Below are positions 12,029-55,768 of a DNA stretch of 64,000 bases, piece by piece; position 1 is the stretch's first letter; every line of letters starts with the position of its first letter. Source of the stretch: Typha latifolia (Eukaryota; Streptophyta; Magnoliopsida; Poales; Typhaceae); NCBI GenBank assembly GCA_019914945.1, contig CM034107.1:6076001-6140000 (forward strand). Direction: 5' to 3'. Under the pieces are notes generated by a model. It was not told the origin of the DNA and made no database searches. It saw only the letters and a program-made list of their open reading frames with translations. Made by a program: the position numbers and the translations under genes.

Positions 12029-12736
12029 TGTTAGGTTTTTAATGTTGGCAAATGTACAAAATAATCTAAGTGCTTTTATACATGTCATGAGCATATCTAC
12101 ATGCTTTGATAAGATTCGGGCTAAAAATTTTCAAGTTTTAGAGAAGATAAGTCACTGCGTTCACACTACGCTCGAACGCGAACTCAAGCGTTCACACATA
12201 CAGAGGTAGTGTTTTGGCCGTTCGAACGCACCCACATAACATGCAAGTTTTTTTGACTTTCGTAAGTTCTATTTTGACTTGGATTTGGCTTTATCTTGTT
12301 AACTTATATAAAAGTTGGGATGCTTTAACCCTAAAGAGGTTGGTGATTACTTTTGAAAAAAAGATATTTAAAGTTACAACGTTCTTCCACCAACAATGTT
12401 TGTTTCTTCTTCAACTATTCAAGCTTTCGTCTTAAGGGTCATTAAGACGAAAATCAATCTTGAGGGCTACTAAAATTGGAGATCAATCATGGGAAGCGGT
12501 GAATTGCAGGTTCTAGCGAGGAAGACTAACAGAAACAAAGTTGTAGGGATCGACGAGTTGTTTTGTAAGTCAGTTTTATAACTGCTACAAGTTTAGTGAT
12601 TAGTTTTGATCCGAGTTAATTTTTTTCCCATTTGGGTTTTTTCACATAAAAAACTTGGTGTTCATGTTTGCTTTAGTCTTTGATATTTATTCTGCATTAA
12701 GCAAAGGGGTGATATCATTGCCTAAGGTTTAGATAT
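12029..12736 (+). repeat. 3' LTR of copia element F, left part
   Basis: It begins TGTTAGGTTTTTAATG just after the polypurine tract AAAAGGGGAGAA (12017-12028) and matches the LTR of element E from its first base. The LTR continues after the gypsy insertion at 19923/19928-19950, where it ends in TTTTTTCA, giving about 730 bp in total. The target duplication GATAT (12732-12736 and 19923-19927) marks the interrupting insertion. Confidence 0.85.
12152..12233. promoter_or_regulatory. GCGTTCGAACGC-type motif array, copia F LTR
   Basis: A short array of CpG-rich words: TGCGTTCACACTACG, CGCTCGAACGCGAAC, AGCGTTCACAC and CCGTTCGAACGCAC. It occupies the U3 position of the LTR, matching the larger array in element E. 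This is the most reduced array in the window. Confidence 0.75.
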
Positions 12737-13185
12737 TGTTACAAATCGGCGTAATCTAATCTGCAATAGTTCTGGACTCGATGAAACACGTAACTTTCAA
12801 GAAAATCTATAAACAATCTAACCAATGGATCTCTGAATTTTGGGTATGTTGTTGCTCTTGGAGAGAGCTTTCCAACGAATCCAAGATCACGGAATTCGGA
12901 CAGTTAGATATCTAGATATCGATCAAACAGTGGCCAAAGATCAATTAGATCCTAGCATGATAGCCCACTAATGGCTAGATAGATGCTAGGTTTAGTTCTT
13001 GGTATGAAAGGGGAGAAGGTATTATAGAAGAGGGTGGTTAGAAGTTGGAAGAGTCCAACCAAAGACTTGGACAGTGGAAGAAGGGAGGAGGGAGAGGGCG
13101 CCAATGGCTAGAGACAAGTAGAGAAGGAGATAAAAAGCCAAAGCCAATTCCAATATCATCATAAGACTCCAATTAGGGTTTCCTC

Positions 13186-13200
13186 CACATATATATAGAG
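13186..13200 (-). promoter_or_regulatory. TATA box of gypsy A LTR
   Basis: On the minus strand GAGCCTCTATATATATG is a strong TATA element. The same phrase is at 19510-19524 in the other LTR and at 46081-46095 on the plus strand in LTR C. It lies about 80 bp downstream of the palindromic motif array. Confidence 0.75.
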
Positions 13201-13282
13201 GCTCACCCTAAGAAATCATCAACTACGTTAAACAACTCCAAACAACCCTAACAAATCCTAACAAAACCCACACTTTCACTGG

Positions 13283-13487
13283 TGCATTCGAACGCGCCCG
13301 ATTGCGTTCGAACGCAAAATTTCCGTTCTCTGTTGATGCGAACATTGTGCAGGCATTTGAACGGCCGTGTTCGAACCATCTGATTCCATTCAAACGCGTA
13401 TTTGCATTCGCTATTTTTGCGAACGTGATCCAAGCATTCGCACCCCCCTGTTCGTACGCGGTCCTTGCGTTCGAACGTGCCCCGACA
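13283..13487. promoter_or_regulatory. GCGTTCGAACGC motif array, gypsy A 3' LTR
   Basis: About ten full or half words, including GCATTCGAACGCGCCCGAT, TGCGTTCGAACGCAAAA, GCATTTGAACGGCC, TGTTCGAACC, CATTCAAACGCG, TTGCGAACGTG and TGCGTTCGAACGTGCC. Degenerate words mostly differ by C-to-T or G-to-A at CpG, as expected from decay of methylated cytosine. The array lies in U3, between the LTR start and the TATA box. Confidence 0.85.
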
Positions 13488-13615
13488 AAAATGATTTTAT
13501 TGCTTCTAACAAACTCAACTAGTGAAATAGGCTCATTCCAATGAACCCAATGTCACACGTGGAGCCAATATGGATCGAATCATATCACTCCATCACGCTT
13601 TCGTTCACCTTGCCC

Positions 13616-14566
13616 TCAAGGTGTTCGCTCAGGATATTGGTCCATGAAGTCGGCTTTAGGCATCAACGTCGCGTCATCCATTGTGCATCCTTGCCACTCC
13701 ACCAAAATCTTAGTCACCCACTCGTCCTGGACTCTAGTGTGTCGGCGAGCTAGGATCCGAACTAGAGTAGGAGTACTTGGTTCGGATTCAGACTCATCGA
13801 CTTCCGTCATCGTTGGCTCGGGTGGAACCACTCCAATGGGCTCGGTAGGGGGAACTTGAGCCTTGAGATTTGAGACGTGAAATACTGGGTGTATCCGCTC
13901 CTCCTCAAGTAAGTCCAGGCAGTATGCTACAGGCCCAATCCTCTTGATCACTTGGTATGGGCCATAAAATTTTAGAGCTAACTTTTGATTGGGAATAGGT
14001 CTAACCGAGCTTTGCCGATATGGTTGGAGCTTGATGTAGACCCAATCCCCAATCGAAAAGGACCTCTCTTGGTGCCTCTAGTCATAGACTTGCTTCATCC
14101 TATTTTGGGCAGCCGCTAAGTGTATCTTGAGTCTCCTCAACACCTCGTCATGGTCTTGCAAAACTGCATCCACTTCGGTTTGATCAGTTCGAGCCAATGG
14201 GAAGTATGTATGCAAGGTGGGAGGTGGCTGCCCATAGACGGCCTCAAATGGAGTCATGCCAATGGTTGAATAAAAAGCCGTATTGTATGATCACTCAGCC
14301 CATGGCAAATAAGATATCCACTATCGCAGTCGCTCGCGAACAAAACACCTCAAGTACTGCTCTAAGCAATAGTTCAGCACCTTGGATTGGTCGTCCGTTT
14401 AAGGATGATAGACTGAACTCATCCGGAAGGTAGTCCCTTGGAACGCAAAGAATTCCTGCCAAAATTGACTCACAAATATATGATCATGATCTGAAACAAT
14501 CAATTTTGGCGTACCATGCATCTTGGCCATGTCGTGCACGTAAACCTCCGCAACCCTTTTTGTTGT
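13616..14566 (-). pseudogene. Gypsy A integrase C-terminal half and chromodomain-like tail
   Basis: Minus-strand continuation of the integrase: VSDHDHIF carries the second catalytic aspartate, and NYCLEQYLRC the glutamate region. The C-terminal RIGPVAYCLDLL and HPVFHVSNLK follow, then a chromodomain-like tail RILARRHTRVQDEWVTKILV with a following EWQG...DATL stretch (about 13640-13780). Several in-frame stops are present. The tail supports placement among the chromodomain-bearing Ty3/gypsy elements, which are thought to target heterochromatin. Confidence 0.8.
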
Positions 14567-15491
14567 CTAAGGATGCGCTAAAGCTAAAAAATGCGCATAC
14601 TTGCTGAGACGATCTACCATCACCAATATAACAGAATGTCCTTTGGCCTTAGGTAGACCATCAATGAAATTTATGGCGACATCCTCCCAAACCTTCATTG
14701 GAATCAGAAGCGGTTGAAGCAATCCAGCAGGTTTTGTTGACTCCGTCTCTTCTCTTTGGCACACTTCACAAGCCTTGACATAAGCATGCACATCTTTCTT
14801 CATCCCAACCCATATGCAACTCTGACTCAACCTTTTATAGGTGCGCAACACCCTTTCATATCCAGCCATGGGGGAGTCATGGAAGTGGCGCATCAACTCC
14901 AAGCGCAAATGACGGTCAGCTAGAACAATGATCTTACCCTTGTCTATTAAGAGTTCGTCTTTCACCAACACTCCTTGTCTACAGCTGGGATCTACAACAA
15001 GGTTTTCCATCATCTTCGTGGTATCTGGATCATTCTTGTAGGCCTCCCGTAGTTGCTGAAAGAAGGGAAAAATCGGTGTTGAAATTGTTACCAACTCGGC
15101 TGGATTTGGGCATCTGGATAAGGCATCGGCGGCGCTGATTTTAGTCTCCTTTTTATAAATGATCTCGTAGTCATATCCAAGTAGCTTAGACACCCACCTT
15201 TGCTAGGCTGGTGTGTGTATGCGCTGCCCAAGAAAGTATGGCAAACTCCTTTGATCAGTGCGAATCGTGAAACATCGCCCAATGAGATAAGGCCTCCACT
15301 TAGTGAAAGCATAAATGATGGCGAGCATCTCTCTTTCATAGGTAGATAGTAGCTATGATCACTCACAAAGAGCCTTGCTCATGTAGACCATGGGTCTACC
15401 CTCTTGCATTAAAACAGCCCCCCACACAACTCTGGATGCATCGCATTCAATGGTGAACGGTTTGGCAAAATCTGCTAAAGCAAGGATCGGG
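14567..15491 (-). pseudogene. Gypsy A RNase H and integrase N-terminal half
   Basis: Reading leftwards from the solo LTR, the RNase H part contains IECDASR, AVLMQEGRP and RTDQRSLPYFLGQRIHTPA, with stops near 15360 and 15205. The integrase zinc-binding and core region has MAGYERVLRTYKRL, CEVCQREETES, NFIDGLPKAKGHS (first catalytic aspartate) and VDRLSKYAHF. The open stretch 14567-15193 is 208 codons. Confidence 0.88.
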
Positions 15492-16198
15492 TGATACACC
15501 TTGTTAGAGTCTTTTCTTATTGCATTAGTTATTTATTTTTATTAAAATAAAATTCTTGTAGGTCACATTCGAAGGCAAAAGGGGTCGCGTACCCTTGTGA
15601 ATGCCTGCATCAGGTTCACAAATATAGAGAACGTGAAAGGCGCGTTCGAACATGGTGGGACGTGTTTAAACACGGCGTTCGTACGTCTACATCACGTTCA
15701 TACATACAGATAATGCCTTTTGCGCATTCGAACGCGATCGGCGGGATTCTACTAGGATTATGTTAGTTATTGTTATTAGGGCTTGCTAGCTAGCCTCTAT
15801 AAAGGTGTGGATGATAGCCAAAATCATTATGTTATTGGAATATTAGTTTCTTGCCTCTCTATCTTCTCTCTACCCTAATCTCCTTCCTCCCTCTTCACCA
15901 ACCTACTACCTCTACCGTTGGCAAGGTCTCTCCTAACTTCTAATCTCTTTCATCTGATAAGTCCTCCATCTTCTTTGGGATCTCGACCACTTCTTCCTCT
16001 TCATCTTTATCCCTTAAACAACACCACCTATCCACCCTCATCTTTATTATCATCCATAACCCTAACTTCCACTCCACCCGTCACCACCACCATCATTCGC
16101 TCATAATTTCTGACTACGGTAGAATATTTTACCTTGGTTGCGTGGACTACTTCCTACAATAAATTAAGATCTTAAAGGAATTATTCCATAACCTATCA
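15492..16198 (+). repeat. Solo LTR inside gypsy A, TSD TCGGG
   Basis: A 707-bp sequence starting TGATACACC and ending CCTATCA, flanked by exact 5-bp duplications TCGGG (15487-15491 and 16199-16203). Removing it and one duplication restores the gypsy A polymerase reading across the gap (AMISGP joins ILALADF). Its start and body match the LTR of gypsy B in opposite orientation (TTTTCTTATTGCATTA, ATTAAAATAAAATTC), so it is a single LTR of that family left by LTR-LTR recombination. It includes a motif array and TATA box (CCTCTATAAAGG, about 15794-15805). Confidence 0.95.
15566..15745. promoter_or_regulatory. GCGTTCGAACGC motif array, solo LTR
   Basis: Words include CACATTCGAAGGC, GGTCGCGTACCC, GGCGCGTTCGAACATG, GGCGTTCGTACGTC, CACGTTCATAC and GCGCATTCGAACGCGATCG. 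The TATA box CTCTATAAAGG follows about 50 bp later, so the array is in the promoter-proximal U3 position. Confidence 0.82.
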
Positions 16199-16203
16199 TC
16201 GGG

Positions 16204-17068
16204 CCTGAGATCATTGCCTTCTTTAAGGCTTCAAATTCTTTCCTTGCTTTCTCTGTCCATGAGAATGCACCCTTCCGTAGCAAGGCCGTGAGGGGAGCTG
16301 CAACCTTGTCATAGTTCGCTACAAATCGACGATAGTAGCCGGTTAAACCGAGGAAACCACGTAGCTCCTTGGTAGTCTTTGGCAGCGGCCAATCTACTAT
16401 GCTTTGGATCTTCTTAAGGTTAGCTTCCATGCCATATTTAGATATGATGTGACCCAGGTAGTCGACCCTTTGGTGCCCCCATGAACACTTGGAGTCCTTT
16501 GCTTTTAACTCGTGTTGCCGAAGTAGGCCAAGCACCGTCCGAAGATGCCCCAAGTGTTCCTCCCATGTCTGGCTGTATACCAATATATCATCAAAGAATA
16601 TCAGCATATATTGCCTTAGATGAGGCCTAAAGATATCATTCATTAAGCTCTGAAAGGTGGCGGGAGCATTGGTAAGACCGAAAGGCATAACGAGGAACTC
16701 GTAGTGTCCATCATGAGTTCTAAACGCCGTCTTGTGCACATCGGATGGTTCGACTCTGATTTGATGGTGCCCACCCCTCAAATCTAGTTTTCAAAAATAA
16801 CATGCACCGCCAATTCATCAAGCAACTCTTCAATCACTAGAATGGGGTACCGATCTTTGACGGTGATGGAATTAAGAGCTCGATAGCCTACACAAAACTT
16901 CCACGACCCATCTTTCTTCCGCACGAGTAAGACCCATGAAGAATAGGAGCTTCTACTTGACCTTATCACCCCGTTGGACAACATCTCTTGGACCATCTTT
17001 GTTATAGCCTCCTTTTGGATGGATGGATATCGGTATGGCCTCACATTGGTTGGACCGGCCCCGGGCAT
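16204..17068 (-). pseudogene. Gypsy A reverse transcriptase
   Basis: Minus-strand polymerase with [58 protein letters not shown] and the catalytic FFDDILVYS box, then LGHIISKYGME and RGFLGLTGYYRRFV. The catalytic aspartates are intact. A stop at about 16784 and a shift separate the palm N-terminal portion (16784-17068) from the rest, and the RNase H portion lies beyond the solo LTR. Otherwise well preserved. Confidence 0.92.
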
Positions 17069-17140
17069 GATCTCGATGCGATGGTCTTGCGCCCTAGGTT
17101 GTGGCAGTCCATGAGACTGTTGGAAGACATCTTCAAATTT

Positions 17141-19025
17141 CTACAAAACAGCCTTTAAATTAGTAGGTAAGGGTATTGGAGCATCCATGTCTTGGGCCCC
17201 TTCGATGAGTTGCATGAGGAACCCGTGGCACCCGGTTTCGGCAACCCTTCTTAGGGACTGCAGCGCTCCAAATATTTCCATGTTTGATGTAGCCGTTAAC
17301 TGGATCAGTTTGCTGTCGTAACTGAACTCCATCGCCATGGTGGTGAAGCTGAAGGTGACCGGTCCAAGATTCTGAAGCCATTGCACCCCAAACACCAAGT
17401 CGGCTTCTCGAAGAGCCAATGGGTAAAGGTCAATTCGGAAGTCATGGCCCTGAATTTGCAGCTGGACCTTGCGGGCATATGCCCTCAGTTCTCAACATGG
17501 TGCCATCTCTGATAATCACATCAAAGTCGTTAGAAGGCTCTGACTCTAATCCCAACCGCCTCACCATCCGTAAATCCACAAAATTGTGGGTACTTCCTAA
17601 ATCAATAAGAATTAGTACATTTTTCTTCTTAATCACTCCTTCGACCTGAAGAGTTTTCAGACTCGATTCGCCGGCAAGTGAATGAAAGGAGAGTTCGGCT
17701 TGAACTTCAAGCAGTTTGTAATCTTCGATGTGGCCCACATCTTCCACTTGCTGCCCCTCATGATCTTCAATAGGATTATCCTCTATCATCTCTTCAATGA
17801 GCATGATGGTTGCGGGTTGTTTGGCACATTTGTGGCCCCGTGTGAAGCGCTCGTCACAATATAAGCATAAACCCTTCAAACGTCGATCTTCAACCTCTGC
17901 TGGTGTGAGGCATCGCCCTGTCACCCTTGGCTTTCCCCTAGGGTCAAGGCCTGTCCATGGTGGGTTTGGCCCAACCCACCTCGAACGTGCCACACCCGAG
18001 ACCGGTGGTCTAGGGTTAACACGTGTTTCGGTAATGCTCTAAGTGGGATGATGAGTAGCCTTCAATTCCTTTATCTTTTCTTTCATCATTTGAGTCACTG
18101 AGAATGCCTCTAGCAAGGTGGTAGGACAAGTAGCTTTGACTTCTGCTTGGATATCATGACGAATCCCAGAGATAAAAGTACTTTTGAGGGTTAATTTCGA
18201 CCACCCGTGGACTCTATTGCTGATTCTTTCAAACTCCTCTTGATAGGCTCTTACAGAAGTCTTTTGGGTTAGTTTTGTCAAGGTAGCTTGGAAGTCTTCA
18301 TAGTTGGAAGGTTTGAAACACTCACAAAGCGCATCGGCAAACTCCTCCCAAGTGGTGAAGGGGCATGAGTGATGTGTTGCTTGGTACCATATCACCGCTA
18401 CGTCTTCAAGTTGGAATGATGCCAGAAGCACCTTTTGGTGATTAGGTGTCCCTTGATAAGTGAAGAATTGCTCTACCCTATAAATTCAATCTAACAGGTC
18501 ACCACTGCTAAACTTAGGAAAATCGATTCGAACGGTGCGGGGTTGTAGCATTTGGTCGCTCCCATTCTTGCGTCCTCGGCGAAGCAGCTCTTATTGTTGG
18601 ACCCTTGGCTGATGTGGGGGCTCCTCCCACTCGTCCCAAGGCTCCTCCTCTAGATGTGGGGCCATAGGTTCCCTCGGGTGGAAAGGAGGTAACTCAGTGT
18701 GGCGCTCGTGTAGTTCGTCGTGCTGTTGCCATGGTGCCTCAAGGATCGGTCCTCGTCAGTTCCCCTCTCTAGGTAAGGGGGGTTCTTCATGTTTTCGATG
18801 ACACTCAGGGTTACGCCTTGGAGGGTACTCATTCCTATCAACAAGGGTGGCCTTTATCTCCAACAATGTTTGCTCCATAAGTGCTAGGGTTTGCGCGAGA
18901 TCAGGAAGACCTTCTGTCCGTCCTCGTGAACTATGAGGGGATGGAGATCTTGACACAGCCATGTGGTCCATCTCCACGCCTTGATCACTTACTTGCTTAG
19001 CCGCCTTGGATCTTGTGGTAGCCAT
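17141..19025 (-). pseudogene. Gypsy A gag and aspartic protease
   Basis: Gag starts at about 19025 on the minus strand (MATTRSKAAKQVSDQG). It continues through the retrotransposon gag domain (LASFQLEDVAVIWYQATHHS, CFKPSNYEDFQATLTKL, VRAYQEEFERI; 18039-18431), a CCHC knuckle (CLYCDERFTRGHKC, near 17850) and the protease LILIDLGSTHNFVD (near 17590). The usual DSGS is DLGS, so the catalytic serine neighbour is altered. At least three stops or shifts break the frame, including those near 18755 and 18040. Confidence 0.88.
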
Positions 19026-19056: not shown

Positions 19057-19058
19057 GT

Positions 19059-19922
19059 TATTACGAACCGGCCTAATATGATCCGCAACGGTTCTGGACT
19101 CGATGAAACACGTAACGTCGAAGGGAATCTGCGAAAAATCTAACCGATGGATCCTCCTAAATTTTGGATATGTTGTTTCTCTTAGAGAGATCATTCGAAC
19201 GAATCTACGATCATGGAATTCTGATGGTTAGATCTCTAGATATCAACCAAACAATGGACAAAGGTCAATTAGATCCTAGCTTGATAGCCCACCAATGGCT
19301 AGATAGATGCTAGGTTTAGTTCTTGGTGTGAAAGGGGAGAAGTTATTATAGAAGAAGGTGGTGAGAAGCTGGAATAGGCTGACCAAAGACTTAAACGGTG
19401 GAAGAAGGGAGGAGGGAGAGGATGCCAATATCTAGAGACAATTAGAGAAGGACATAAAGGCTAAAGCTAATTCCAATATCATCATAAGACTCCAATTAGG
19501 GTTTCCTCCACATATATATAGAGGTTCACCCTAAGAACTCCTCAACTAAGTTAAACAACTCCAAACAACCCTTACAAATCCTAATAATCCTAACAAAACC
19601 CACACTTTCACCGTAGTGCGTTCAAACGCGCCCGATCATGTTCGAATGCGAAATTTTCGTTCTCTGTCGATGCGAACGTTGTGTAGGCGTTCAAACGGCC
19701 GCATTTGAATGGCCTGATTCTGTTCGAATGCGCTATTTGCATTCTTTATTTTTGCAAACATGATCTAGGCGTTCGCACCCCTCCGTTCTAACGCGGTCCC
19801 TATGTTCGAACGCGCCCTGGCAAAAATGATTTTATTGCTTCTAACAAACACAACTAGATAAATAGGCTCATTCCAATGAACCCAATATCACGCGTGGAGG
19901 TAATATGGATCGAATTATATCA
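19059..19922 (-). repeat. 5' LTR of gypsy A
   Basis: An 864-bp LTR aligned to 12737-13587 and bounded on the right by the target duplication GATAT. Its inner end reads TAATA on the minus strand where the partner reads GTAACA. The TATA box is at about 19510-19524 (minus). Confidence 0.93.
19612..19822. promoter_or_regulatory. GCGTTCGAACGC motif array, gypsy A 5' LTR
   Basis: Co-linear with the array in the other LTR of the element but more decayed: GTGCGTTCAAACGCGCCCGA, ATGTTCGAATGCG, GCGTTCAAACGGCCGC, TGTTCGAATGCGC, GCGTTCGCACC and ATGTTCGAACGCGCC. Pairwise differences are mostly CpG transitions. Confidence 0.83.
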
Positions 19923-19950: not shown

Positions 19951-20480
19951 ATATAAAAGAATATGTATAAGGCATATTGGGCAGTCGGGTAATTGTCAAG
20001 TAAACGAATGCCCTTATCAGTTAATGATATCTAATCAAATCTAGAGGGTGGTATAATTAAAAATGTATGTAATATACTTTTGCTACGACAACAAAAGGCT
20101 ATGAGATGAGTGAGCAAATTTGATACCCAAAAAATACCAAAGAGGATTGAGGTCCTTCATCTCAAGCTAATAGTGAAGATGCTGTAGAAGAGAGTGGATA
20201 CTAGTTGAGTCATCTTCGGTGATAATCATATCATCCACATATAGAAGAAGAATGACCTGACCTAAGTAAAAAACTACAAAAACATAGATGGCTCAAAGGG
20301 GCTCTACTAAAGTTCATAGGCTATGAGAACAATGCAAAATTTATCAAACCAGGCACGAGGGGCCTACTTGAGCCCATAGATAGCTCAACGCAATCGACAT
20401 ATGTGACTTGGAGGAAGAGGGAAACTAGGTGGAGGATCCATGTATATTTTCTCATGAAAAAGACCGTGATGAAACGCATT
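19951..20480 (-). pseudogene. Copia element H, reverse transcriptase 3' part
   Basis: The minus strand reads a Ty1/copia reverse transcriptase: LLLYVDDMIIT (catalytic YVDD, about 20225-20255), then WYFLGIKFAHSSHSLLLS (about 20110-20160), with later codons decayed by stops. The left end is cut at 19950, where the copia F LTR ends. The right end is cut at 20480 by the Athila-like element; the same host frame resumes at 39114. Confidence 0.8.
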
Positions 20481-21926: not shown

Positions 21927-21932
21927 AGTTTT

Positions 21933-30776: not shown

Positions 30777-31179
30777 TGTTAGGTTTTTAATTATTGATAA
30801 TTGTGTATAAAATATTCTAAGTGTATTTTTACATGTATATGAGCTTTATACAAGTCTAGAATATCTCTGGTTTGAAGAATTGCAAAATTATTGGAGAAAA
30901 GTTGTTGACTTCACACCGTGTTCACAAACGCGTTCGAACGCGGGTACTTGCGTTCACACAGACCAAGAGCTGCGTTCACAAACGCATTCGAACGCGGGTA
31001 CTGCGTTCACACAGACCGAGAGCTGCGTTCACAAACGCGTTCGAACGCAACTTGAAGCAACTTGAAGAATTCAAGTTGTCGCGTTTGAACGCACTCGGGC
31101 CCATTCGAACGCACTTGAGATCAAGTCATGCCATTTGAACGCACCCGGGCCGCGTTCGAACGCACCAACGAAGTTTGAT
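30777..31179 (+). repeat. 5' LTR of copia E, 3' half deleted
   Basis: It aligns with the first 400 bp of the 3' LTR (37911 onward) with roughly 13 mismatches in the first 190 bp by eye. Homology stops after AACGAAGTTTGAT, where the TATA-containing half, primer-binding site and gag start should follow. Gag sequence follows directly. Confidence 0.93.
30917..31168. promoter_or_regulatory. GCGTTCGAACGC motif array, copia E 5' LTR
   Basis: At least nine words: ACCGTGTTCACAAACG, ACGCGTTCGAACGCGGG, TGCGTTCACACAGACC, CTGCGTTCACAAACGC, GCATTCGAACGCGGG, AACGCGTTCGAACGCAAC, GCGTTTGAACGCACTCGGGC, CATTCGAACGCAC and CGCGTTCGAACGCACC. A sub-repeat (GCGTTCACACAGACC-RAGAGCTGCGTTCACA) occurs twice. In the intact 3' LTR the TATA box lies about 70 bp further on. 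Confidence 0.9.
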
Positions 31180-34940: not shown

Positions 34941-36488
34941 TTTTTTTTATTTTGGTTTGCGTGTTTCTCTTTTATTATTTCTTTTTGTTTCTTTTTAGGT
35001 TTTCTTTACTCTGAATTTTTCTTTGGTTTTAGTCTCAGATTTGTTAAGAGCTTTTGTCATAAAAAAAAATTTGATGCACTCCTAGATTAAATAATATACT
35101 CTTGCATATAAATATGATTTTTCTCTTGATTATAAGTTAGTAAAGTCAATTTTGTCATCTTGCAATATATTGTATCATTTCTGATTTGTTCACTCTCTCG
35201 ACTTCTATGATAATTAAACTAATTTTAATGCACTCATAACGTGTGTATATTCTTGAGTGAGTATGACATCATGAAATTTTTTTTAAATAGCTCACTATTG
35301 ACGTTAATTTGCACAGTTTGACCTCATGCTTAGTCATCATAAATGTGTTCATAAAAGATCAATAAAAATGGCTACAATGAGTTAGTGTGAAAGTCATCTT
35401 GTTTAGAGTCCACTTTGACTTAGTACATTGCTTGCAAATTAAATAAATTTTTTTAATGTTTGTGAATATCTTCTTGCACATTGTTTGATATGTACTACAA
35501 AAAAGGGCTACCTACTCATGTGTGAAAGTCATTATTGCACCTATATGGTTTATATATAAAAAAAATATAGGAAAAATTCATGTTCGGTTATGGAGAATAA
35601 GTCGAAAAGTGCAAATTTGAATACTAAGTCGGTTTGACTACTGAGTTGTATCATTGTTTAAATAGAAAAGTTTATTTAAGAAGAATGTCTCATGTTATCT
35701 ATGCTCACTTTGCATATGCATATTGTTATGATCAATCAAGATTAATTTAATTTTGAGTGATGCATTAGAATTGATTATAATATGCTTTTGATGATTTGAT
35801 TGATCTGTGTATGACTTATTTCATTCGATTGTCATATTCTATGTCTTGAATCTATTTTGAATTTCTAGAAGTGCATCTCAAAAAAGATTTTTTTATTTTT
35901 TCTTAGATTTTTTACTTAAAAAAAAGAAAAAGGGGGCATTCGAATGCAAATTTTTGAGTTCGAACGCGGTGACTAGCGCGTTCGAACGTGCAGACTGGTG
36001 CGTTCGAACGCACTCGAGGATTCTTTATATACTGCGTTCGAACCCAAGGATTTTCATCTTCCATCTTCTAAACCCTAGAAACCATTCATTTTCTCCGTCT
36101 CAAATCTTCAAGATCTTGATCTTTTTCATCAAATTTCTCACTACAAACCATTTTAAAGGGTAGTTCTCCTCCGGATCTAGCATTTTTCGGCCGAATTTCC
36201 TAGTTTTTCTTCACTTTTGCGAGGTATGATCATCCATCAATTTTCCTATTTTTTTATTCAATTAAGTCTCTTGATCTTGATTGATTTCGTGCGTTTTCGA
36301 GTTTTGATCACGTTAAAGTTACTATCTTGATGTTTCTTGTATGATTGAACGTGATATATTAGTGTTTTCAAGTGGATGATGGATTTCATTTAGGGCCTTC
36401 ATGATTTCTTGCATTTTTTTTATTTCTTGCTATCTTTTTGTTTGCTTTGAGCATGTATTGAATCTTGCATCTTGTTTCTTTCTCAAGA
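34941..36488 (+). other. Copia E spacer between pol and env-like ORF
   Basis: Mostly AT-rich and untranslated, co-linear with copia F (about 10560-11650). It contains an internal motif array and TATA-like site (separate entry). A donor-like GAG|GTATG at 36224 and an acceptor-like TTTCTTTCTCAAG ending at 36487, two bases before the env-like ATG, suggest a spliced subgenomic transcript. The donor is conserved in copia F (CTGCAAGGTATG). Confidence 0.6.
35937..36052 (+). promoter_or_regulatory. Internal GCGTTCGAACGC array with TATA-like site
   Basis: GCATTCGAATGC, GAGTTCGAACGCGG, GCGCGTTCGAACGTGC, TGCGTTCGAACGCACTCG and TGCGTTCGAACCC surround TTCTTTATATACTG (about 36021-36034). About 450 bp later the env-like ORF begins, with donor and acceptor sites between. 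This copies the architecture of the LTR promoter. Copia F lacks the block at the same position. Confidence 0.72.
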
Positions 36489-37538
36489 ATGCCTAGAAAA
36501 GCTGCAGTTTCCAAGAAACCTAGACCACCTTCCTCACCTACTTCGGCTCCCAAGTTTTCTATATCTACGGCTGCAGGGCGATACAAACACAATTTTGGCA
36601 CTCGACCTATTATTTGTGAACGGCCCGTGGTCATTTCTGATTTTTCTGCCTTGGGGATCGAACAGATCTTTACTGAGCGAGGATGGTTATCCGTGTGTCG
36701 GATGAGCGGGACTACGTATGTGGAAGTGGTTAGGGAATTTTTCAGTAAAGCCACGATTTTAGAATGTTGTATACATTCTAGTGTCCGTGGGGTTTCGATC
36801 TACTTGGACTCCGATGTTATTCGTGCAGAACTCCAACTTCCTGATGGTGAATTCCAGTATCCGTCATCTGCTCCACTCCCTGATGTCAACGAAGTTGCTG
36901 GTACTGTGTTAATCAAAGGGGAACGTTGGAAGGGCAATATGATGCCTTATGCGAAACTGACATCAGTGGCTGGCATGCTTCACCTACTTTGTCTGTACAA
37001 CGTCACCCCCAAGACTCGCCATTCCAGTATTAGTCCTGATCGTGCCTTCCTCCTTCATGTGATGTTGTCGGGAGTTTTTGTTGATTTGGCTGCGGTGATC
37101 TATGATTCCATTCTAACAGCTGCATAGAAATAAGCGCCCCGTGAAGGGTTGCCGTTTGGCATATTTATTACCAATTTGTGCACTTAGAGTGGAGTGCGCG
37201 TGGATGCCTCAGAACCTTCTCTTACTTCGCAAAAACCGTTGGATCGGATTACTCTTAAGTGGAGTCAAGCTCATGATTAGTCGTCTCCTCTCAAGCCGTC
37301 CTCTTCCGTCGCTGGACGTTCCTCACACCTCAATATTTCTGATGACAGTTCGGATGATGACTCATCTCACACTGAGGGGGAGTTACCACAGTTCTCTGAC
37401 CGTTTTGATCAGCTTAGCACTCAGGTGCAGGACCTCCATTCGATCGTGAATGATTTACGAGCTGAGCAAGCACGTCAGGGGACCGTTCTCGACTCTGTCT
37501 TGTCGATTCTTCATCATCAGTTCCCTTCGAGTTCCTAG
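36489..37538 (+). pseudogene. Env-like third ORF of copia E
   Basis: ATG at 36489 (MPRKAAVSKKPRPP) opens a frame of 212 codons to a TAG at 37125. It continues in the same frame past four stops to 37538. It has a basic Pro/Ser-rich start, then FTERGWLSVCRMSGTTYVEV, VREFFSKATI, VRGVSIYLDSDVIRAELQLP and LCLYNVTPKTRHSSISPDRA, a pattern I associate with the plant transposon protein domain in third ORFs of Sirevirus and some gypsy elements. The C-terminus is acidic (SDDSSDDDSS) with a coiled coil (FDQLSTQVQDLHSIVNDLRA). No signal peptide or membrane segment is visible, so an envelope role is unsupported. Function unknown. Confidence 0.78.
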
Positions 37539-37910
37539 TCTTTGGCATTTGTGCCAAAAAGGGGGAGAGTGAGTGTGTGAGTTTAGACGTGTGTTTGGAG
37601 TTTAGGAGTTTACTAGTGTAGGGGGAGTAATGGCATAGGAGGATTTTACTAGGTTCTGTTTACTGCTTAAATACCTTTGCGTGAATACCTGTAAACTTTG
37701 TTTGCTTGAGTATTTGTGAATTGCTTACTTGATAATTTGTGTTTGGATTGTTATTCATTTCAAGTTATTTTCACTTGATCTTGGTTTGGTATATTTTTAT
37801 TTGCAAGGATTGATGTGCTAAAAGTACTAGACTTATTGAATGCTCATTTTGAATTCTTTGTAATATCTTGTAAACTAGATGTTTTGTCACAAATTGCTAA
37901 AGGGGGAGAT
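37539..37910 (+). other. Copia E region before the 3' LTR
   Basis: Includes AAAAAGGGGGAGAGTGAG (37555 onward) and a second GGGGGAG tract near 37620, both candidate central purine tracts. The polypurine tract AAAGGGGGAGAT abuts the 3' LTR. Confidence 0.65.
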
Positions 37911-38860
37911 TGTTAGGTTTTTAATTATTGGCAATTGTGTACAAAATATTCTAAGTGTATTTTTACATATATATGAGCTTTATACAAGTCTAGAATATCT
38001 CTGGTTTGAAGAATTACAAAATTATTAGAGAAAAGCTGTTGAGTTCACATCGCGTTCACAAACGCATTTGAACGCGGGTACTTGCGTTCACATAGACCGA
38101 GAGTTGCGTTCACAAATGCGGGTACTTGCGTTCACACAGACCGAGAGCTGCATTCACAAACGCATTCGAACGCAGGTACTGCGTTCACAGAGATCGAGAG
38201 CTGCATTCACAAATGCGTTAGAACGCAACCTGAAGAATTCAAGTTGTCGCGTTCGAACGCACTCAGGCCCGCTCGAACACACCTGAGATCAAGTCATGCC
38301 GTTCGAACACACCCAAGCCATGTTCGAATGCACCAACGAAGTTTGATAAAATTGGACTTTTGTGAGTACGGATAAGACTTAGATTTGGCTCTATCTTGAA
38401 GATCATATATAAGGATTATGATGCCCTATCTCTAGGGAGGTTGAAGAAGCATTATTGAAGGAGACTTCTTGAGGCTACATCGGTTCTTCAACTAACAAGG
38501 TTCCACTCATCTATAAAACTTAATCTTTCGTCTTAAGGGCTATCTAGACGAAAGATGAATCTCGAGGGTTACTAAGGTTGGACTTCAATCACGAGAAGTA
38601 GTGAATCGTGGGTTCTAGCGAGCAAGACTGAGAGGAACAGAGTCGTTTGGATCGACGGGTTATTTTGTGAGTCAGTCTTATAACTGCTACTATTCTAGTG
38701 ATTGGTTTTGATCCGAGTTTGGATCCGTAGTTTTTTTCCCGTTTGGGTTTTTCCACGTTAAAATCTTGGCGTTCATACTTGTGTCTAGGGGTTTACTTAA
38801 GCGAACGAGTGATATAATTGCCTAGTATTTAGATACATACTTGTGTCTAGGGGGTTTTCA
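37911..38860 (+). repeat. 3' LTR of copia E, complete
   Basis: A 950-bp LTR running from TGTTAGGTTTTTAATT to GGGGTTTTCA, followed by the target duplication AGATT. The TATA box ATCATATATAAGG is at about 38402-38414. The end region has two copies of ATACTTGTGTCTAGGGGKTT (about 38775 and 38836). Confidence 0.95.
38045..38335. promoter_or_regulatory. GCGTTCGAACGC motif array, copia E 3' LTR
   Basis: Co-linear with the 5' LTR array but with an extra partial repeat (GCGTTCACA-TAGACCGAGAG unit three times instead of two) and more CpG losses (GCATTTGAACGCGGG, GCGTTAGAACGCAACC, GTTCGAACACACC, ATGTTCGAATGCACC). It ends about 70 bp before the TATA box. The copy-number difference from the 5' LTR implies slippage or unequal exchange after insertion. 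Confidence 0.88.
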
Positions 38861-46618: not shown

Positions 46619-46786
46619 TGGTATCAGAGCTTAACAATTTGGTATCAGAGCCTATCAATTGGTATCAGAGCTTAACAATTTGGTATCAGAGCCTATCAAT
46701 TAGTATCAGAGCTTAACAATTTGGTATCAGAGCCTATCAATTGGTATCAGAGCTTATCATTAGTATTAGAGCCTATCAGAGAGATC
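46619..46786 (+). repeat. Tandem primer-binding sites, eight copies
   Basis: Eight copies of TGGTATCAGAGC or one-base variants (TAGTATCAGAGC, TAGTATTAGAGC) follow one another every 20-21 bp, alternating linkers TTAACAAT and CTATCAAT, so the higher-order unit is 41 bp. Each could pair with initiator methionine tRNA. A normal element has one. Confidence 0.92.
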
Positions 46787-50174: not shown

Positions 50175-50943
50175 TGATAAGATCTAGAACCAAAGATAGG
50201 CTACGCTAAGATTCCTTCAAGATCTGAATTTATTATAAAAATCAGTTTGCGCAATTAAAAAAATATATTCGTCAAATATTCTCTAGTAGTCAAAACATTA
50301 CGAAACTAATTGGGTTGGATCTGTAACTTCCTAATCTATAACTTTTGTATTTATGCCCTTCACATATATGAACTTAGTAGGGACGAAAATATGGAATAAC
50401 GTAGGTGATGGTGGTGGTGACGGGTGGAGTGGATGTTAGGGTTATGGATGGGTATGGAGATGAGGGTGGATTGTGGAAGTGACTAAGGGAAGTAGACGAA
50501 GGGAATTAAGTGGTCGAGATCCCAAAGAAAAGGGGTGATTCGACAAACGAGGGAAATTATAAGGGAGGAGAAACCTTGCCAACGATCTAGAGAGAAGATA
50601 GGAGGCAAGAAATCAATAATCCAATTCCAATATGAAGTTTGTTGCCATCCACATATTTATAGAGGCTAGCCAACAAATCCTAAAACAATATGAAATCCTA
50701 ATTTTAAAAGATTCTCGTCGATCGAACGCGTTCACGGGCATTCACAAACGCGGGCGTTCACAAGGCGTTCACAAGCATTCACAAGCGTTCACAAGGCGTT
50801 CACAAGCGTTCACAAGGTGTTCACAAGGGTTCACAAGCGTTCGAACGCGACTCTACTTGCGTTCGAACACGACCTACATGAATTTTATTTTAATGAAAGT
50901 AAACACCTAATACAATAAGAAAAGATCCAAACTAAGTGTATCA
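50175..50943 (-). repeat. 3' LTR of gypsy B
   Basis: A 769-bp LTR matching 54936-55768. It lacks a segment present in the other copy, between about 50560 and 50590 (the GGTAGAGGTGGAAGGATGGTG stretch at 55350-55380). The TATA box on the minus strand is CCTCTATAAATATG (50652-50665). Confidence 0.92.
50718..50872. promoter_or_regulatory. GCGTTCGAACGC/GCGTTCACAA array, gypsy B 3' LTR
   Basis: GATCGAACGCGTTCACGGGC leads into a run of GCGTTCACAAG half-sites spaced 9-11 bp (about nine copies), ending AGCGTTCGAACGCGACTC and TGCGTTCGAACACGACC. The tandem half-site expansion is stronger than in any other LTR here. The array is about 50 bp upstream of the TATA box. Confidence 0.88.
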
Positions 50944-51357: not shown

Positions 51358-52766
51358 CTACAATAATCTCAAAATATCTGCGTCAGATGTACATGCATAA
51401 CTCAGCTCATCGATGAAGGGAAAGGTAGGAGATGAATAGGCTGCAAGCTCGGCGGTATTGGGTTGGTGCGATAGTGCATCCGCCACTCTATTTTTCATTC
51501 CCTTCTTGTATTGAATTTCATAATCATACCCTAACAATTTTGTGACCCATCGCTGTTGTGCCGGAGTGTGTATGCGCTGTCCCATAAAGTATGGAAGGCT
51601 CCTTTGATCGGTTCGGATAATGAATCGTCTACCAATCAAATAAGGTATCCACTTTGACACCGCATGTAGAATTGCCAACATCTCTCTCTCATAAGTCTAT
51701 AATTGCTGATATTTTTGCGATAAAGCCTTACTAAGATAGGAAATAGGATGTCCTTCTTGCATTAGTACTGCTCCTATGCCAATACCCGATGCATCACACT
51801 CAACAATGAATTCTTTGGTGAAATCCAGTAGCGTTAGAATGGGTGTCGTCGTCATTGCTGTTTTCAATTTTTCAAAGGCTAAAGTGGCTTTATCCGTCCA
51901 TCTAAAAGAGTCCTTCTTTAACAAAGAAGTGAGAGGAGCAGTGATCTTGCCATATTCGGCGATGAATCGACGATAATAACCAGTCAGCCCTAAAAATCCT
52001 CTCAATCCGATGATAGTAGTAGAAATAGGCCAAGCGGTCATACATGCAACCTTTTGACGATCCGCCACTACACCATCCGCTGAAATGATGTGGCCTAAAT
52101 ACTCCACCTTCGGTACTCCCCATAGGCATTTGGACTTTTTGATCTTTAATTGGTTTTGTTCTAACAAATTCAGCACATTCTCCAAATGTCGATAATGCTC
52201 CAATTCAGTCTTACTATACACTAAAATATTGTCAAAAAATACCAAGACATACCTTCTAAGAGAGGCCAAAATATATCATTCATGAGGCCTTGAAAGGTAG
52301 CTGGAGCATTGGTGAGACCAAAAGGCATCACTCGAAAATCATAATGCCCATCTGGAGTCCGAAATGCAGTTTTGTGCACATCTGCCGGGTCAACTCTAAT
52401 TTGATGATACCCGGCCCTCAAGTCAAGCTTACTAAATATAGTTTCTCCTGCAAGCTCGTCCAGTAACTCCTCGATAATCGAAATAGGATATCGGTCTTTG
52501 ACGGTAATAGCGTTTAGTGCTCGATAGTCAACACAAAAATGTCATGTCCCATCCTTTTTTTGCATCAAAAGCACGGGGGATGAGTATGATCTATAACTTG
52601 GTTGTATAAGGCTTTGCTCCAACATCTCGGCTACCATCTTTGAGATAACTTTTTTTTGCACATGTGGGTACCGATATGGCCTCACGTTCGCCGGTGCAGC
52701 CCCGGGTACAATCTCTATGTGGATGGTCTGCCGCTCTCCTCGGTGGCAACTCCTACGGCTCCTCAA
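51358..52766 (-). pseudogene. Gypsy B reverse transcriptase and RNase H
   Basis: Polymerase blocks: [75 protein letters not shown] and FFDNILVYS. The second catalytic aspartate is asparagine (near 52230), which should abolish catalysis. Then VEYLGHIISADGV, RGFLGLTGYYRRFI, RNase H VECDASGIGIGAVLMQEG, RTDQRSLPYFMGQRIHTPA and NRVADALSHQ. A shift near 52260 and stops near 52430-52545 split the frame. Confidence 0.92.
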
Positions 52767-53039
52767 ACAGTCCAGAAAAGTTATCTAATAGATTAGACAA
52801 TTCAATGATAGTACCTGAACTCGTTTGATGCTCATCTCCTGCTGGTCCTAACTAAAGAAGATAAGCCAAATCATATGCACCAAGCAGCCCCACCATAGGC
52901 TGCATCGTAGGAATTAGTGAAGTCCATCAAGTCGCACATCTTTGTTTCCTTGTTTATATTTCATCCACATGCTTCGAAAATTAAATGTGACGGATCTCAA
53001 ACTTTGTAACCACTGAGCACCAAGGACAATGTCCGCTCC

Positions 53040-54760
53040 TCATAGCGCCAACGGATACAAGTCCACAATGATGTCGTGTCCTTGCACCCGTATACCGACT
53101 CGGCGACATAAACTCTCCGCCCTAAGCTTCGTGCCGTCTCTAATAGCAACGTCAAACCCCATAGTCGGTTCAGCATCAAAACCTAATCTCTCACTAGCCA
53201 CTCGTCTAGAAAGTTGTGTGTACTCCCGGAATCGATGAGGATGTGCACACAATGCTTTCTAACAAGTCTGTCTACTCGTAGCATCCTCGGCGCGGAAGTA
53301 CCCAAATATGCATGCATCGATATTTCAACTTGGATATCCTTCTCCATGCCCTCCTCCATAGTCTCCTCATGGGTCTCCTCTGGACTCTCCATCATCAACT
53401 ACCTCATCATCCTCCTCAGGACTATCAATAAGCATCACGCTCCCGATCGGTTTAGAACACCGATGACCGGGGGTGAAACACTTATCACATCGAAACCAAA
53501 GGCCCTTCGCTCTTCGCTCCTCCACCTGGGCAGGTGTGAGAGTTCGAACGGGGGATCTTGTGCCTCATCTAACGTCGGAAGAAGGTCTCAAATGTGATCG
53601 TGGTCTAGTAGTCGCAGTCGCTGTTTTTGAAACCGCAGAATTTCCAATCGACATTCTAGGTGCAAACCGCCCATCTCGGTTGCCCCAATTGATTTTCGCT
53701 ACCATCGTTAGAGCCCTATGCTTTTGTTCCATCCTCATGGCCTTCTCAAAGACCTCCTCAAGAGTAGTAGGACATAGAGCACGAACATCCGCTTGTATCT
53801 CCTATCGCAGCCTTGAAATAAATATATTCATCAATGTACGTTTGGGCCATGGTGGCTCACAACGACTACTAACTCTTTCAAACTCAGTTTAGTACTCCAA
53901 TACGGTAGTCTTTTGAATCATCTTGCTTAATGTGGCAGTAAAATCTTCATATGCCGCTGTTCCAAATCTGCATATAATCCTCCTACAAAAATTAGCCCAT
54001 CCAATAAATCCACCACCACAAATAATCGACCTATACCAATGCAATGCCGTTCCTTGGAGGTGGAAGCTTGCCATTTGGACTTTTGCATCTTCCATTGTAC
54101 CTTGACAATCAAAATATTATTCAACTTAAAACACCCAATCCGTTGGATCACCGCCTTAGAATTTTGGAAAGTCCAAGCGGGCGGTTCTCCCCTGAATAGC
54201 ATTGTCGGGTTCACGAAAGATTCTTGGTTCATGTCTAAACCTTTGTGCATGTTGATCACCTTCTCTAAATCCTCGAGCACGTACATCACCATCTCCATAG
54301 GGATCAACCTCATCCTCATAGTGCCAATCCTCCTCATCGACGAAGCGCGCGGTGCCGCACGCCTCTCAAGTTCCACTACCGCTGGTCTTGAGTTTTGTAA
54401 CGGAGGTGGGGGCTGATGTGAAGGCATAAGTAGGAGGGGATCATTGACACTCATATGACGGACTTGGACCTATGAGGTATCGGTTCTATGGAGTCCCACC
54501 GTTGGTCCTTCTTGAAACTCCGTTCGTCATCGAGGAGATGACGAACTCAATTGATTTACAACATATTCCTTAAATTCATTGTAATCCTTTTGTATGTTGT
54601 CAACTCTATGCAACAATGTTTGGAACATGTCCCTTAGTTCATCCATATTTGAACCCATGGACGTTGGTTGACTCGGTCCTGCCGTGGTCGCTCCAAAGGA
54701 ATCAGCCTCCCGGTTAGGATCATCGTGCATTGAGTCCTCCCTTGTCAGTGTGCTCTCCAT
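53040..54760 (-). pseudogene. Gypsy B gag and protease
   Basis: Gag begins at 54760 on the minus strand (MESTLTREDSMHDDPNREAD). It continues through a predicted coiled coil (ELRDMFQTLLHRVDNIQKDY), the gag domain (VQMASFHLQGTALHWYRSI, CRFGTAAYEDFTATLSKM), a CCHC-like knuckle with the second cysteine kept (FRCDKCFTPGHRC, near 53470) and the protease HILIDSGSTHNFLDEWLVRD (53183-53250), whose catalytic DSG is intact. Several stops and shifts, for example at 54527, 53889 and 53180. Confidence 0.88.
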
Positions 54761-54820
54761 AGGTCTTTGTTGATATCATCTTCCTTGTTTCAACCATTAA
54801 TAGAGGTCTGAGGTTTGCTT

Positions 54821-54935
54821 GCTCTAATACCAATTGATAGGCTCTGATATCAATTGTTAGGCTTTGATACCAATTGATAGGCCCTGATACCAATTGTTAG
54901 GCCATGATACCAATTGTTAGGTTCTGATACCAATT
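54821..54935 (-). repeat. Tandem primer-binding sites, six 20-bp units
   Basis: Six head-to-tail units, the first five exactly 20 bp: GCTCTAATACCAATTGATAG, GCTCTGATATCAATTGTTAG, GCTTTGATACCAATTGATAG, GCCCTGATACCAATTGTTAG, GCCATGATACCAATTGTTAG and GTTCTGATACCAATT. On the minus strand each gives a TGGTATCAGAGC-type site for initiator methionine tRNA. The unit touching the LTR reads TGGTATCAGAAC, one base off the consensus. Confidence 0.94.
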
Positions 54936-55768
54936 TGATAAGATCTAGAACCAAAGATAGGCTACGCTAAAATTCTTTCAAAATCTGAATTTATTATAAA
55001 AATTAGTCCGCACAATTGAGGAAAACTATTCGTCAGATATTCTTCGATAGTCAGAAAATTACGAAACCAATTGGGTTGGATCTGTAACTTCCTATCTACA
55101 ACTTTTGTATTTACGCCCTTCACAGATTCGAGCTGTAGTAGGGACAAAAATACGGAATAACGTGGGTGATAGTGGTAGTGACGGGTGGAGTAGATGTTAG
55201 GGTTATGGATGGGTATGAAGATGAGGGTGGATTGTGGAAGTGATTAATGAAAGTAGACGAAGGGAACGAAATGGTCGAGATCCCAAAGAAGAAGGGTGAT
55301 TCGACAGATGAGGGAGATTAGAAGCGAGGAGAAACCTTGCCAACGGTAGAGGTGGAAGGATGGTGAAGAGGGAGGAGGGAGGAGTCTAGAGAGAAGATAG
55401 GAGGCAAGAAATCAATAATCCAATTCCAATATGAAGTTTATTGCCATCCACATATTGATAGAGGCTAGCCAACAAGTCCTAAAATAATATGAAACTCTAA
55501 TTCTAGAAGATTCTCATGGATCACGTTCGAACGCGCCCGATCACGTTCGAACACACTAAAAAAGCCCCTTCTTTGGATTTGCGAACGCGACACAGGCGTT
55601 CACAAGTCATTCGAACGCGGGCGTTCACAAGGCGTTCACAAGCATTCACAAGGGTTCACAAGCATTCGAACGCGACTCCACCTGTGTTCGAACGCGATCT
55701 ACAGAAATTTTATTTTAATAAAAATAAATACTTAATGCAATAAGAAAAGATCCTAACTAAGTGTATCA
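54936..55768 (-). repeat. 5' LTR of gypsy B
   Basis: An 833-bp LTR, the partner of 50175-50943. The TATA box is changed to CCTCTATCAATATG on the minus strand (about 55449-55462). Its outer flank is CAATG. Confidence 0.92.
55516..55697. promoter_or_regulatory. GCGTTCGAACGC motif array, gypsy B 5' LTR
   Basis: Begins CACGTTCGAACGCGCCCGAT, nearly the phrase found in gypsy A (CATTCGAACGCGCCCGATTG). It continues CACGTTCGAACAC, TTGCGAACGCGAC, AGGCGTTCACAAG, CATTCGAACGCGGGCGTTC and ends CATTCGAACGCGACTCC and TGTTCGAACGCGATC. It has fewer half-site units than the partner LTR, with extra full sites on its TATA-proximal side. Confidence 0.88.

What the first reader, a model, noticed from the sequence alone, without database searches (positions are those of the whole stretch)
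12152..55697. The same palindromic promoter array in both copia and gypsy LTRs
GCGTTCGAACGC (a perfect 12-base palindrome with two CpGs per half) and its decayed forms make arrays at 12152-12233, 13283-13487, 15566-15745, 19612-19822, 30917-31168, 38045-38335, 50718-50872 and 55516-55697. Ty1/copia elements (E, F) and Ty3/gypsy elements (A, B and a solo LTR) share little else in their LTRs. In each LTR with a visible TATA box, the array lies in U3 upstream of it (about 50-80 bp in gypsy A, gypsy B, the solo LTR and copia E). Gypsy A and B even share the longer phrase TTCGAACGCGCCCGAT with the same spacing to the next palindrome, and copia E has a comparable GAACGCACTCGGGC. Palindromic repeats upstream of the TATA box are described for cereal Sireviruses with a different sequence. 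Sharing one word across two superfamilies suggests capture of an enhancer module or convergence on one host factor.
Basis: partly seen in the sequence, partly recalled or inferred. Interest (0 to 1): 0.9.

Follow-up and report, generated by a model that had tools for sequence, protein, structure and literature searches.

The report
One promoter code, two retrotransposon superfamilies
In this plant genome, unrelated kinds of jumping genes carry the same array of a 12-letter mirror-symmetric DNA word just upstream of their promoters, which suggests that they share, and may have swapped, one switch for turning themselves on.

Summary
GCGTTCGAACGC occurs 7 times exactly in the window (0 in shuffles) and 14,944 times in the 214 Mb genome, against 0 for the reversed word. 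All eight listed arrays are real; a ninth (35936-36045) was missed. In a grid sample of 18 stretches (180 kb), the 16 exact copies lie in arrays: 5 in copia LTRs, 2 in a copia internal promoter, 5 in gypsy LTRs, 4 in an unassigned LTR-like family. Outside arrays the word is at background.

Copia E is a Sirevirus by its polypurine-tract signature. Sireviruses are known for palindromic arrays before the TATA box and before their extra gene (PMC2829016), so the copia half is a new word of a known kind. New is the same word in several Ty3/gypsy LTR families, plus a second shared feature: ACAGAG exactly 10 bp after a half-site in copia E, copia F, gypsy A and gypsy B/C. In gypsy A the array behaves as an exchangeable cassette.

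Best reading: a transferable U3 enhancer module read by one dimeric factor. The factor, and transfer versus convergence, are unproven. Species not named; probably a cattail (inference).

The parts
12152..12233 (+). array in U3 of copia F LTR; palindromes at 12168 and 12218, half-sites GCGTTCACA at 12157 and 12188, ACAGAG 10 bp after the second half-site
12305..12312 (+). TATA box of copia F LTR (TATATAAA)
13283..13487 (-). array in U3 of gypsy A LTR (3' LTR of a minus-strand element)
13189..13197 (-). TATA box of gypsy A LTR
12736..13587 (-). gypsy A LTR, paired with 19058-19922 at 84.6% identity (limits from self-BLAST)
13619..18485 (-). gypsy A coding pieces in the order gag (18042-18485), RT (16167-16790), integrase (14570-15202, 13619-14077)
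   Evidence: Pfam
15566..15745 (+). array in a gypsy B/C-type LTR (15491-16095) without a partner seen in the window; TATA at 15798-15803
19612..19822 (-). array in the second LTR of gypsy A (19058-19922); TATA at 19512-19520
30917..31168 (+). array in the truncated 5' LTR of copia E (U3 only; the alignment with the 3' LTR ends at 31179)
33555..34568 (+). copia E reverse transcriptase (PF07727)
35936..36045 (+). ninth array, not in the finding: 5 palindromes between copia E pol and the extra ORF; same array in L019
36024..36031 (+). TATA-like sequence TTTATATA, 12 bp after the last perfect palindrome of the internal array
   Evidence: palindrome plus TATA word 447 times genome-wide with up to 3 mismatches, control 0
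36489..37124 (+). open part of the extra ORF of copia E at the Sirevirus ENV position; PF20167 Transposase_32
37901..37912 (+). Sirevirus-type PPT and attachment site AGGGGGAG-AT-TG; further AGGGGGAG copies at 37375, 37560, 37620
   Evidence: 17-letter word 433 times genome-wide, control 0
38045..38335 (+). array in U3 of the 3' LTR of copia E (LTR begins at 37911); TATA at 38406-38412
50718..50872 (-). array in gypsy B LTR (about 50154-50943), rich in half-units GCGTTCACAA on the + strand; TATA at 50652-50661
51361..52541 (-). gypsy B reverse transcriptase and RNase H pieces
55516..55697 (-). array in the second LTR of gypsy B (about 54915-55768); no TATA hexamer found

Best explanation
The arrays are a U3 enhancer module. 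Palindromes (Y)GCGTTCGAACGC(R) and their half-sites bind a dimeric DNA-binding factor, a second element ACAGAG sits exactly one helical turn after a half-site, and the TATA box follows mostly within 12-97 bp. The module serves the LTR promoters of a Sirevirus-type copia group and of at least two gypsy LTR groups, and a second, internal promoter in front of the extra ORF of copia E. It reached more than one superfamily as a transferable cassette (recombination or template switching between elements) and is kept because one factor reads it. Shown: sequence, position, sharing, the second element, and cassette behaviour within the gypsy A family. Inferred: binding, enhancer activity, and transfer between superfamilies.
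For: 14,944 exact copies genome-wide, control 0. In the grid sample all 16 exact copies lie in arrays of LTRs or of the internal promoter, and 0 of 177,394 array-free bases match with up to 1 mismatch. ACAGAG (up to 1 mismatch) at +10 from a half-site in 10 of 12 gypsy A, 6 of 8 gypsy B/C, 10 of 11 copia E and 3 of 3 copia F arrays, reached by 0 of 500 spacer shuffles in each group; genome-wide GTTCRCANNNACAGAG 3,731 against 10 for the reversed pattern. Palindromes 20-21 apart with TCGGG in the spacer: gypsy A 5 of 9, gypsy B/C 4 of 7, copia E 10 of 26. Site profile symmetric over about 14 bp in both superfamilies. In the gypsy A family, copies with and without the array are as alike in R-U5 (86.2%) as array copies among themselves (86.0%), and the U3 on both sides of the array is homologous in 9 of 9 array copies tested, whereas the array segment is not in 0 of 9. 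Arrays stay CpG-rich (observed/expected 1.43-2.04, window 0.61).
Against: No binding, expression or chromatin data. With palindromes and half-sites masked, only 1 of 11 copia arrays aligned to gypsy arrays better than all 200 shuffles, 4 more were reached by 1-5 of 200, and 6 were no better than chance, reached by 18 to 185, so homology of whole arrays is not shown. ACAGAG at +10 was not found in the internal copia array (no half-sites) nor in the unassigned family (0 of 4 half-sites), and TCGGG spacers were absent from copia F (0 of 1), the internal array (0 of 2) and the unassigned family (0 of 3). Half-units GCGTTCACAA point along transcription in copia and against it in gypsy B. Direction of cassette exchange is not resolved (2 changes on a poorly supported tree). 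The word is not seen outside TEs in the sample, which is odd for an ordinary host factor site.
Confidence: 0.55

Rival explanations
1. Convergence: copia and gypsy lineages each evolved the same composite site independently because the same host factor drives expression in the germ line; nothing was transferred.
For: No alignable sequence between superfamilies outside the arrays and weak similarity of masked spacers. Opposite orientation of GCGTTCACAA units. Sireviruses of distant plants share near-identical palindromes without other homology (PMC2829016, passages and Results parts 1-2).
Against: Not only the palindrome but ACAGAG at exactly +10 and TCGGG spacers in the same orientation recur. 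In the 13 elements of Table 3 of PMC2829016 there are 12 different words, so words usually differ even among Sireviruses.
Confidence: 0.25
2. The arrays matter mainly as host silencing targets: read-through RNA folds into hairpins that feed small RNAs, as proposed for maize Sirevirus palindromes; sharing reflects persistence, not activation.
For: Three arrays folded as RNA: z -7.1, -2.5 and -4.5 against dinucleotide shuffles. C>T or G>A makes 171 of 216 substitutions at the six CpG letters of 261 sites, as after methylation. Maize Sirevirus palindromes are small-RNA hotspots (PMC5311732 and PMC10760457, passages).
Against: A silencing target is a cost and does not explain why the same word is kept upstream of TATA in several families and before an internal TATA. 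In maize, Ty3/gypsy elements lacked such a structured peak (PMC10760457, passages).
Confidence: 0.1
3. A non-functional minisatellite of U3 that spreads by slippage and unequal crossing-over.
For: Tandem units of about 10, 22 and 53 bp in several arrays; 16 palindromes in one copia LTR (L004).
Against: Different repeat units in different families share the same 12-mer; the profile is symmetric; the array sits before TATA in two superfamilies and before an internal TATA; ACAGAG at fixed phase.
Confidence: 0.06
4. Known plant sites by chance: heat-shock elements or RNA polymerase III B boxes.
For: The core TTCGAA recalls half-sites of heat-shock elements, and GTTCGA the B box (recalled).
Against: In 20,721 bp of array regions: TTCNNGAA 2, GAANNTTC 2, TTCGAA 181, B box GGTTCGANTCC 0.
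Confidence: 0.02

Closest known systems
Repeated motifs (RM) of Sirevirus LTRs (Bousios et al. 2010, PMC2829016; passages and Results parts 1-2 read)
   Same: Palindromic, many copies, CpG-rich, in the upper LTR before the TATA box, and again before the ENV gene; present here in copia E in both places.
   Different: The word lacks the CGG-CCG core that all but Tnd-1 share. The paper calls RMs Sirevirus-specific among the copia elements compared; here the same word is also in Ty3/gypsy LTRs. The paper could not identify an internal promoter; here the internal array is followed at 12 bp by TTTATATA.
Maize CACCGGACNNNGTCCGGTG shared by Copia and Helitron structured regions (PMC10760457, passages only)
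   Same: One Sirevirus palindrome found in another TE superfamily.
   Different: Partner there is Helitron; Ty3/RLG elements lacked an obvious peak. Here the partner is Ty3/gypsy, in the LTR, upstream of TATA, with a shared second element.
VANDAL/VANC motif arrays in Arabidopsis (PMC5735166, abstract and two Results sections)
   Same: Short motif at high density in non-coding parts of TEs, evolving as tandem repeats, rare outside.
   Different: VANC motif is one family's, lies in a DNA transposon, and a TE-encoded binder is proven; here two retrotransposon superfamilies and no known binder.
Tnd-1 Sirevirus RM ACAATCGATTGT (Table 3 of PMC2829016)
   Same: 12-bp palindrome with a TCGA centre and no CGG-CCG core.
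   Different: Outer letters differ; tobacco element without ENV.

Membership tests
Sirevirus (Ty1/copia), for copia E | copia-type reverse transcriptase | tested here: met
   PF07727 E 1.3e-64
Sirevirus (Ty1/copia), for copia E | PPT AGGGGGAG followed by AT/TG at the 3' LTR | tested here: met
   37901-37912; degenerate in copia F by eye
Sirevirus (Ty1/copia), for copia E | several PPT octamers in the linker, near the 3' LTR | tested here: met
   37375, 37560, 37620, 37901; 4 in L019 as well
Sirevirus (Ty1/copia), for copia E | distinct RT clade, inverted repeat around the PPT, poly-C integrase signal, conserved 5' LTR junction | not tested
   no reference set was built; the 5' LTR junction of E is deleted
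Sirevirus RM class | palindromic repeats upstream of TATA in the LTR and upstream of the ENV-position gene | tested here: met
Sirevirus RM class | CGG-CCG core signature | tested here: not met
   GCGTTCGAACGC has none; Tnd-1 is the published exception
Sirevirus RM class | absent from elements that are not Sireviruses | tested here: not met
   present in gypsy A and B/C LTRs
Ty3/gypsy, for element A | gypsy-type gag, RT and integrase with RT before integrase | tested here: met
   PF03732/PF19259, PF00078, PF17921, PF24626 in that order on the minus strand
Ty3/gypsy, for element B | gypsy-type RT and RNase H; integrase after RT | tested here: inconclusive
   RT and RNase H met; integrase of B was not scanned
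VANC-like self-encoded system | TE-encoded protein binds the motif | not testable with these tools
   PF20167 ORF has no DUF1985 or DUF287 hit at E<=10; model useless, pLDDT 32.5

The most novel reading that the evidence does not exclude
A TE-private regulatory code: the array is read by a factor made by the Sirevirus-type copia itself (candidate: the PF20167 ORF, which has an array and TATA box of its own before it), in the manner of a retroviral transactivator with an internal promoter or of VANC proteins, and gypsy elements have taken over the same array to live off that factor.
Probability: 0.12. Interest if true: 0.92.

Novelty: new variant of a known kind. Interest (0 to 1): 0.62.

Why it matters
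If retrotransposons of two superfamilies trade promoter modules, TE activity in a genome is a network that shares inputs rather than a set of independent families: one factor, or one silencing event aimed at one word, would move thousands of copies at once. The 14-bp site gives a concrete bait for finding that factor, and the array-bearing and array-less gypsy LTRs of one family are a natural promoter swap that can be assayed directly. The array plus TATA before the extra ORF bears on the open question of whether Sirevirus ENV-position genes have an internal promoter.

Tried and rejected
Heat-shock elements and B boxes as the identity of the word: not borne out. Local recombination between neighbouring copia and gypsy at this locus only: rejected, because arrays recur on other contigs in both superfamilies. 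General sequence homology of copia and gypsy arrays with palindromes masked: mostly not significant. Strand bias of GCGTTCACAA along C1 seemed strong in the listing, but the listing shows only the first 100 places, and one search has a similar one-strand tail beginning at another position; taken as a likely listing effect and not used. Structure of the PF20167 ORF: AlphaFold2 with 3 sequences gave mean pLDDT 32.5, so no fold search was run. PDB sequence search with the ORF profile: three hits at E 0.89-1.5, not meaningful. Homologues of the ORF: one protein only, P0241, 85% identical, source unnamed. Naming the species from the copia RT search failed; RPN6 is 95% identical to coconut and banana proteins, and searches returned places on C1-C15, which with 214 Mb suggests a cattail (T. 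angustifolia: 15 chromosomes, 207 Mb; PMC12058305 and PMC10230045, passages), an inference. Literature: eight answered searches. One search, for the word itself, found 62 papers of which 20 were listed, none of the 20 on plant transposons by title; one search found no paper. Only open-licence papers are held. Bousios et al. 2016 on maize Sirevirus palindromes was not read; it is known here through passages of PMC10760457 and PMC5311732.
Full report
What was checked. The 12-mer occurs 7 times exactly in the window (0 in 100 shuffles) and 38 times with up to 2 mismatches (mean 0.41). 37 of the 38 fall in the eight listed arrays or in one more at 35936-36045; the last is a lone hit at 53540. Four of the eight listed arrays hold no exact copy. 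The genome, 214,191,904 bases in 62 contigs, holds 14,944 exact copies; the reversed word has 0. By base composition about 3 would be expected (my arithmetic at 38% GC). The half-unit GCGTTCACAA occurs 7,183 times on both strands, control 168.

Where it lies. A fixed grid of 20 stretches of 10 kb was asked for; 18 exist. They hold 16 exact copies in 4 of 18 stretches, the commonest 12-bp palindrome after AT repeats. Clustered hits form 9 arrays: 3 in copia LTRs, 1 at the copia internal promoter, 4 in gypsy LTRs, 1 in an LTR-like family that I could not assign (also in L038 and L025; weakly like gypsy B/C). By exact copies: 5 copia LTR, 2 copia internal, 5 gypsy, 4 unassigned. The remaining 177,394 bp have no hit with up to 1 mismatch, 2 with up to 2 (shuffles 1.4), and 1 core GTTCGAAC (shuffles 0.4). 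In this sample the word is therefore confined to transposable elements. Within the window two LTR sets lack it: the gypsy element at 20478-30777 and the LTR-like stretch upstream of 46140.

What the elements are. Copia E has a copia reverse transcriptase (PF07727), the Sirevirus PPT and attachment site at 37901-37912, and four PPT octamers in the linker. The 17-letter PPT-LTR word occurs 433 times in the genome, control 0. Between pol and 3' LTR lies an ORF with PF20167 (Transposase_32); the passages I saw of PMC11728184 relate that domain in sunflower to ORF1 of Athila elements. Copia F shares linker sequence (78%, 10848-11431 with 35288-35890) and LTR parts with E. Gypsy A has gag, RT and integrase in gypsy order; gypsy B has RT and RNase H.

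Known part. Bousios et al. (PMC2829016; passages, outline, Results parts 1-2 of 3) describe palindromic repeated motifs in 13 Sireviruses, in the LTR before TATA and again before the ENV gene, with a CGG-CCG core except in Tnd-1, absent from the other copia elements compared. The array of copia E in its LTR and before its extra ORF matches that layout; only the word is new. The missed ninth array is that second site. It has TTTATATA 12 bp after its last perfect palindrome. The palindrome-to-TATA word recurs 447 times with up to 3 mismatches (at least 98 exact in the list shown), control 0. The authors favoured an internal promoter for ENV but could not identify one; this is a candidate.

New part. 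The same word fills U3 of Ty3/gypsy LTRs. For gypsy A, 20 copies were read by their R-U5: 12 of 20 have at least two palindromes in U3, 7 of 20 have none, and 1 is interrupted by a copia LTR. For copia E, 5 of 5 further LTR copies read have 7-9 palindromes each; these were picked from the best matches. In PMC10760457 (passages) the maize Sirevirus palindrome is also the commonest motif of Helitron structured regions, while Ty3 elements lacked an obvious peak; so sharing across superfamilies has a precedent, but not with Ty3/gypsy.

More than one shared word. Both superfamilies share (a) a symmetric profile with weak extension to YGCGTTCGAACGCR (122 gypsy and 82 copia sites); (b) ACAGAG at +10 from a half-site: 10 of 12 gypsy A, 6 of 8 gypsy B/C, 10 of 11 copia E, 3 of 3 copia F arrays, 0 of 500 spacer shuffles in each, while other offsets are mostly empty (gypsy A +17: 4 sites; copia E +12: 13, +8: 3); genome-wide 3,731 against 10; (c) TCGGG in the spacer of palindromes 20-21 apart in gypsy A 5 of 9, gypsy B/C 4 of 7, copia E 10 of 26, but 0 of 6 in copia F, internal and unassigned arrays. 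Of the first 50 exact pairs listed (1,526 in all), 21 are 20-22 bp apart and 14 are 34 bp apart, so spacing is not uniformly helical. Against homology of whole arrays: masked alignments exceeded every shuffle in 1 of 11 copia arrays only.

Cassette. In gypsy A copies, R-U5 identity is 86.0% among array copies, 87.9% among array-less copies and 86.2% between the two (9 of the 12 array copies and 5 of the 7 array-less ones were given to this call, leaving out 3 short or partial arrays and 2 truncated or unrelated U3s). The U3 segment nearer TATA and the segment beyond the array match array-less copies better than all 60 shuffles in 9 of 9; the array itself in 0 of 9. The shuffles were scored against one array-less copy while the best of five was taken, so the distal result (scores 26-34, shuffle maxima 25-29) is modest. 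A tree of R-U5 (20 rows) needs 2 changes of state and is poorly supported, so gain and loss cannot be told apart.

Mechanism, by step. Shown: a private, symmetric, CpG-rich word (observed/expected 1.43-2.04 in nine arrays, 0.61 in the window) at a promoter-proximal place in two superfamilies and one internal promoter, with a second element in phase. Inferred: a dimer binds the palindrome, a partner binds ACAGAG, and together they drive TATA-dependent transcription. Inferred: transfer between superfamilies. Decay of sites is 171 of 216 C>T or G>A at the six CpG letters (261 sites), as expected if most copies are methylated. RNA folding is stronger than chance in three arrays, so small-RNA production may be a by-product.

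Who reads it. No binder was found. That the word is missing outside TEs in the sample makes a TE-encoded or TE-specialised factor worth testing; the PF20167 ORF, with an array and TATA box of its own, is the obvious candidate, but a usable model could not be made and Pfam shows no relation to the VANC domains.

Verdict. Observation confirmed, interpretation partly supported. A new variant of a known kind: Sirevirus-type palindromic arrays, here with a new word and spread into Ty3/gypsy LTRs as part of a composite module.

Noticed in passing
46605-46778 and 54821-54963: Tandem arrays of a 20-bp unit holding TGGTATCAGAGC (a primer-binding-site-like word, by recall that of initiator tRNA-Met) beside gypsy LTRs: about 8 units at 46.6 kb on + and 7 on the minus strand at 54.9 kb; repeated primer sites would be unusual.
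   Followed up: partly
L046:52-135 and following: Start of the PF20167 ORF joined directly to an LTR palindrome array, a deletion junction with TTCGAATGC at the joint; arrays may be recombination points.
   Followed up: no
L004:1375-2117: A copia LTR with 16 palindromes in about 740 bp, mainly 55-bp units.
   Followed up: no
L039: Gypsy A LTR that by eye has array-type distal U3 and array-less-type proximal U3, perhaps a mosaic.
   Followed up: no
L025: A copia LTR end lies between the U3 and the TATA box of a gypsy A LTR.
   Followed up: no
9033-10412 and 42600-43870: Two dispersed repeats (84% and 68% identity) that share GAA-rich tracts, not assigned to a TE.
   Followed up: no
3160-4449: Uninterrupted reading frame for 26S proteasome subunit RPN6, 95% identical to palm and banana proteins.
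   Followed up: partly
858-1057, 41896-42035, 58420-58566: Other tandem repeats with units of 99, 39 and 73 bp.
   Followed up: no
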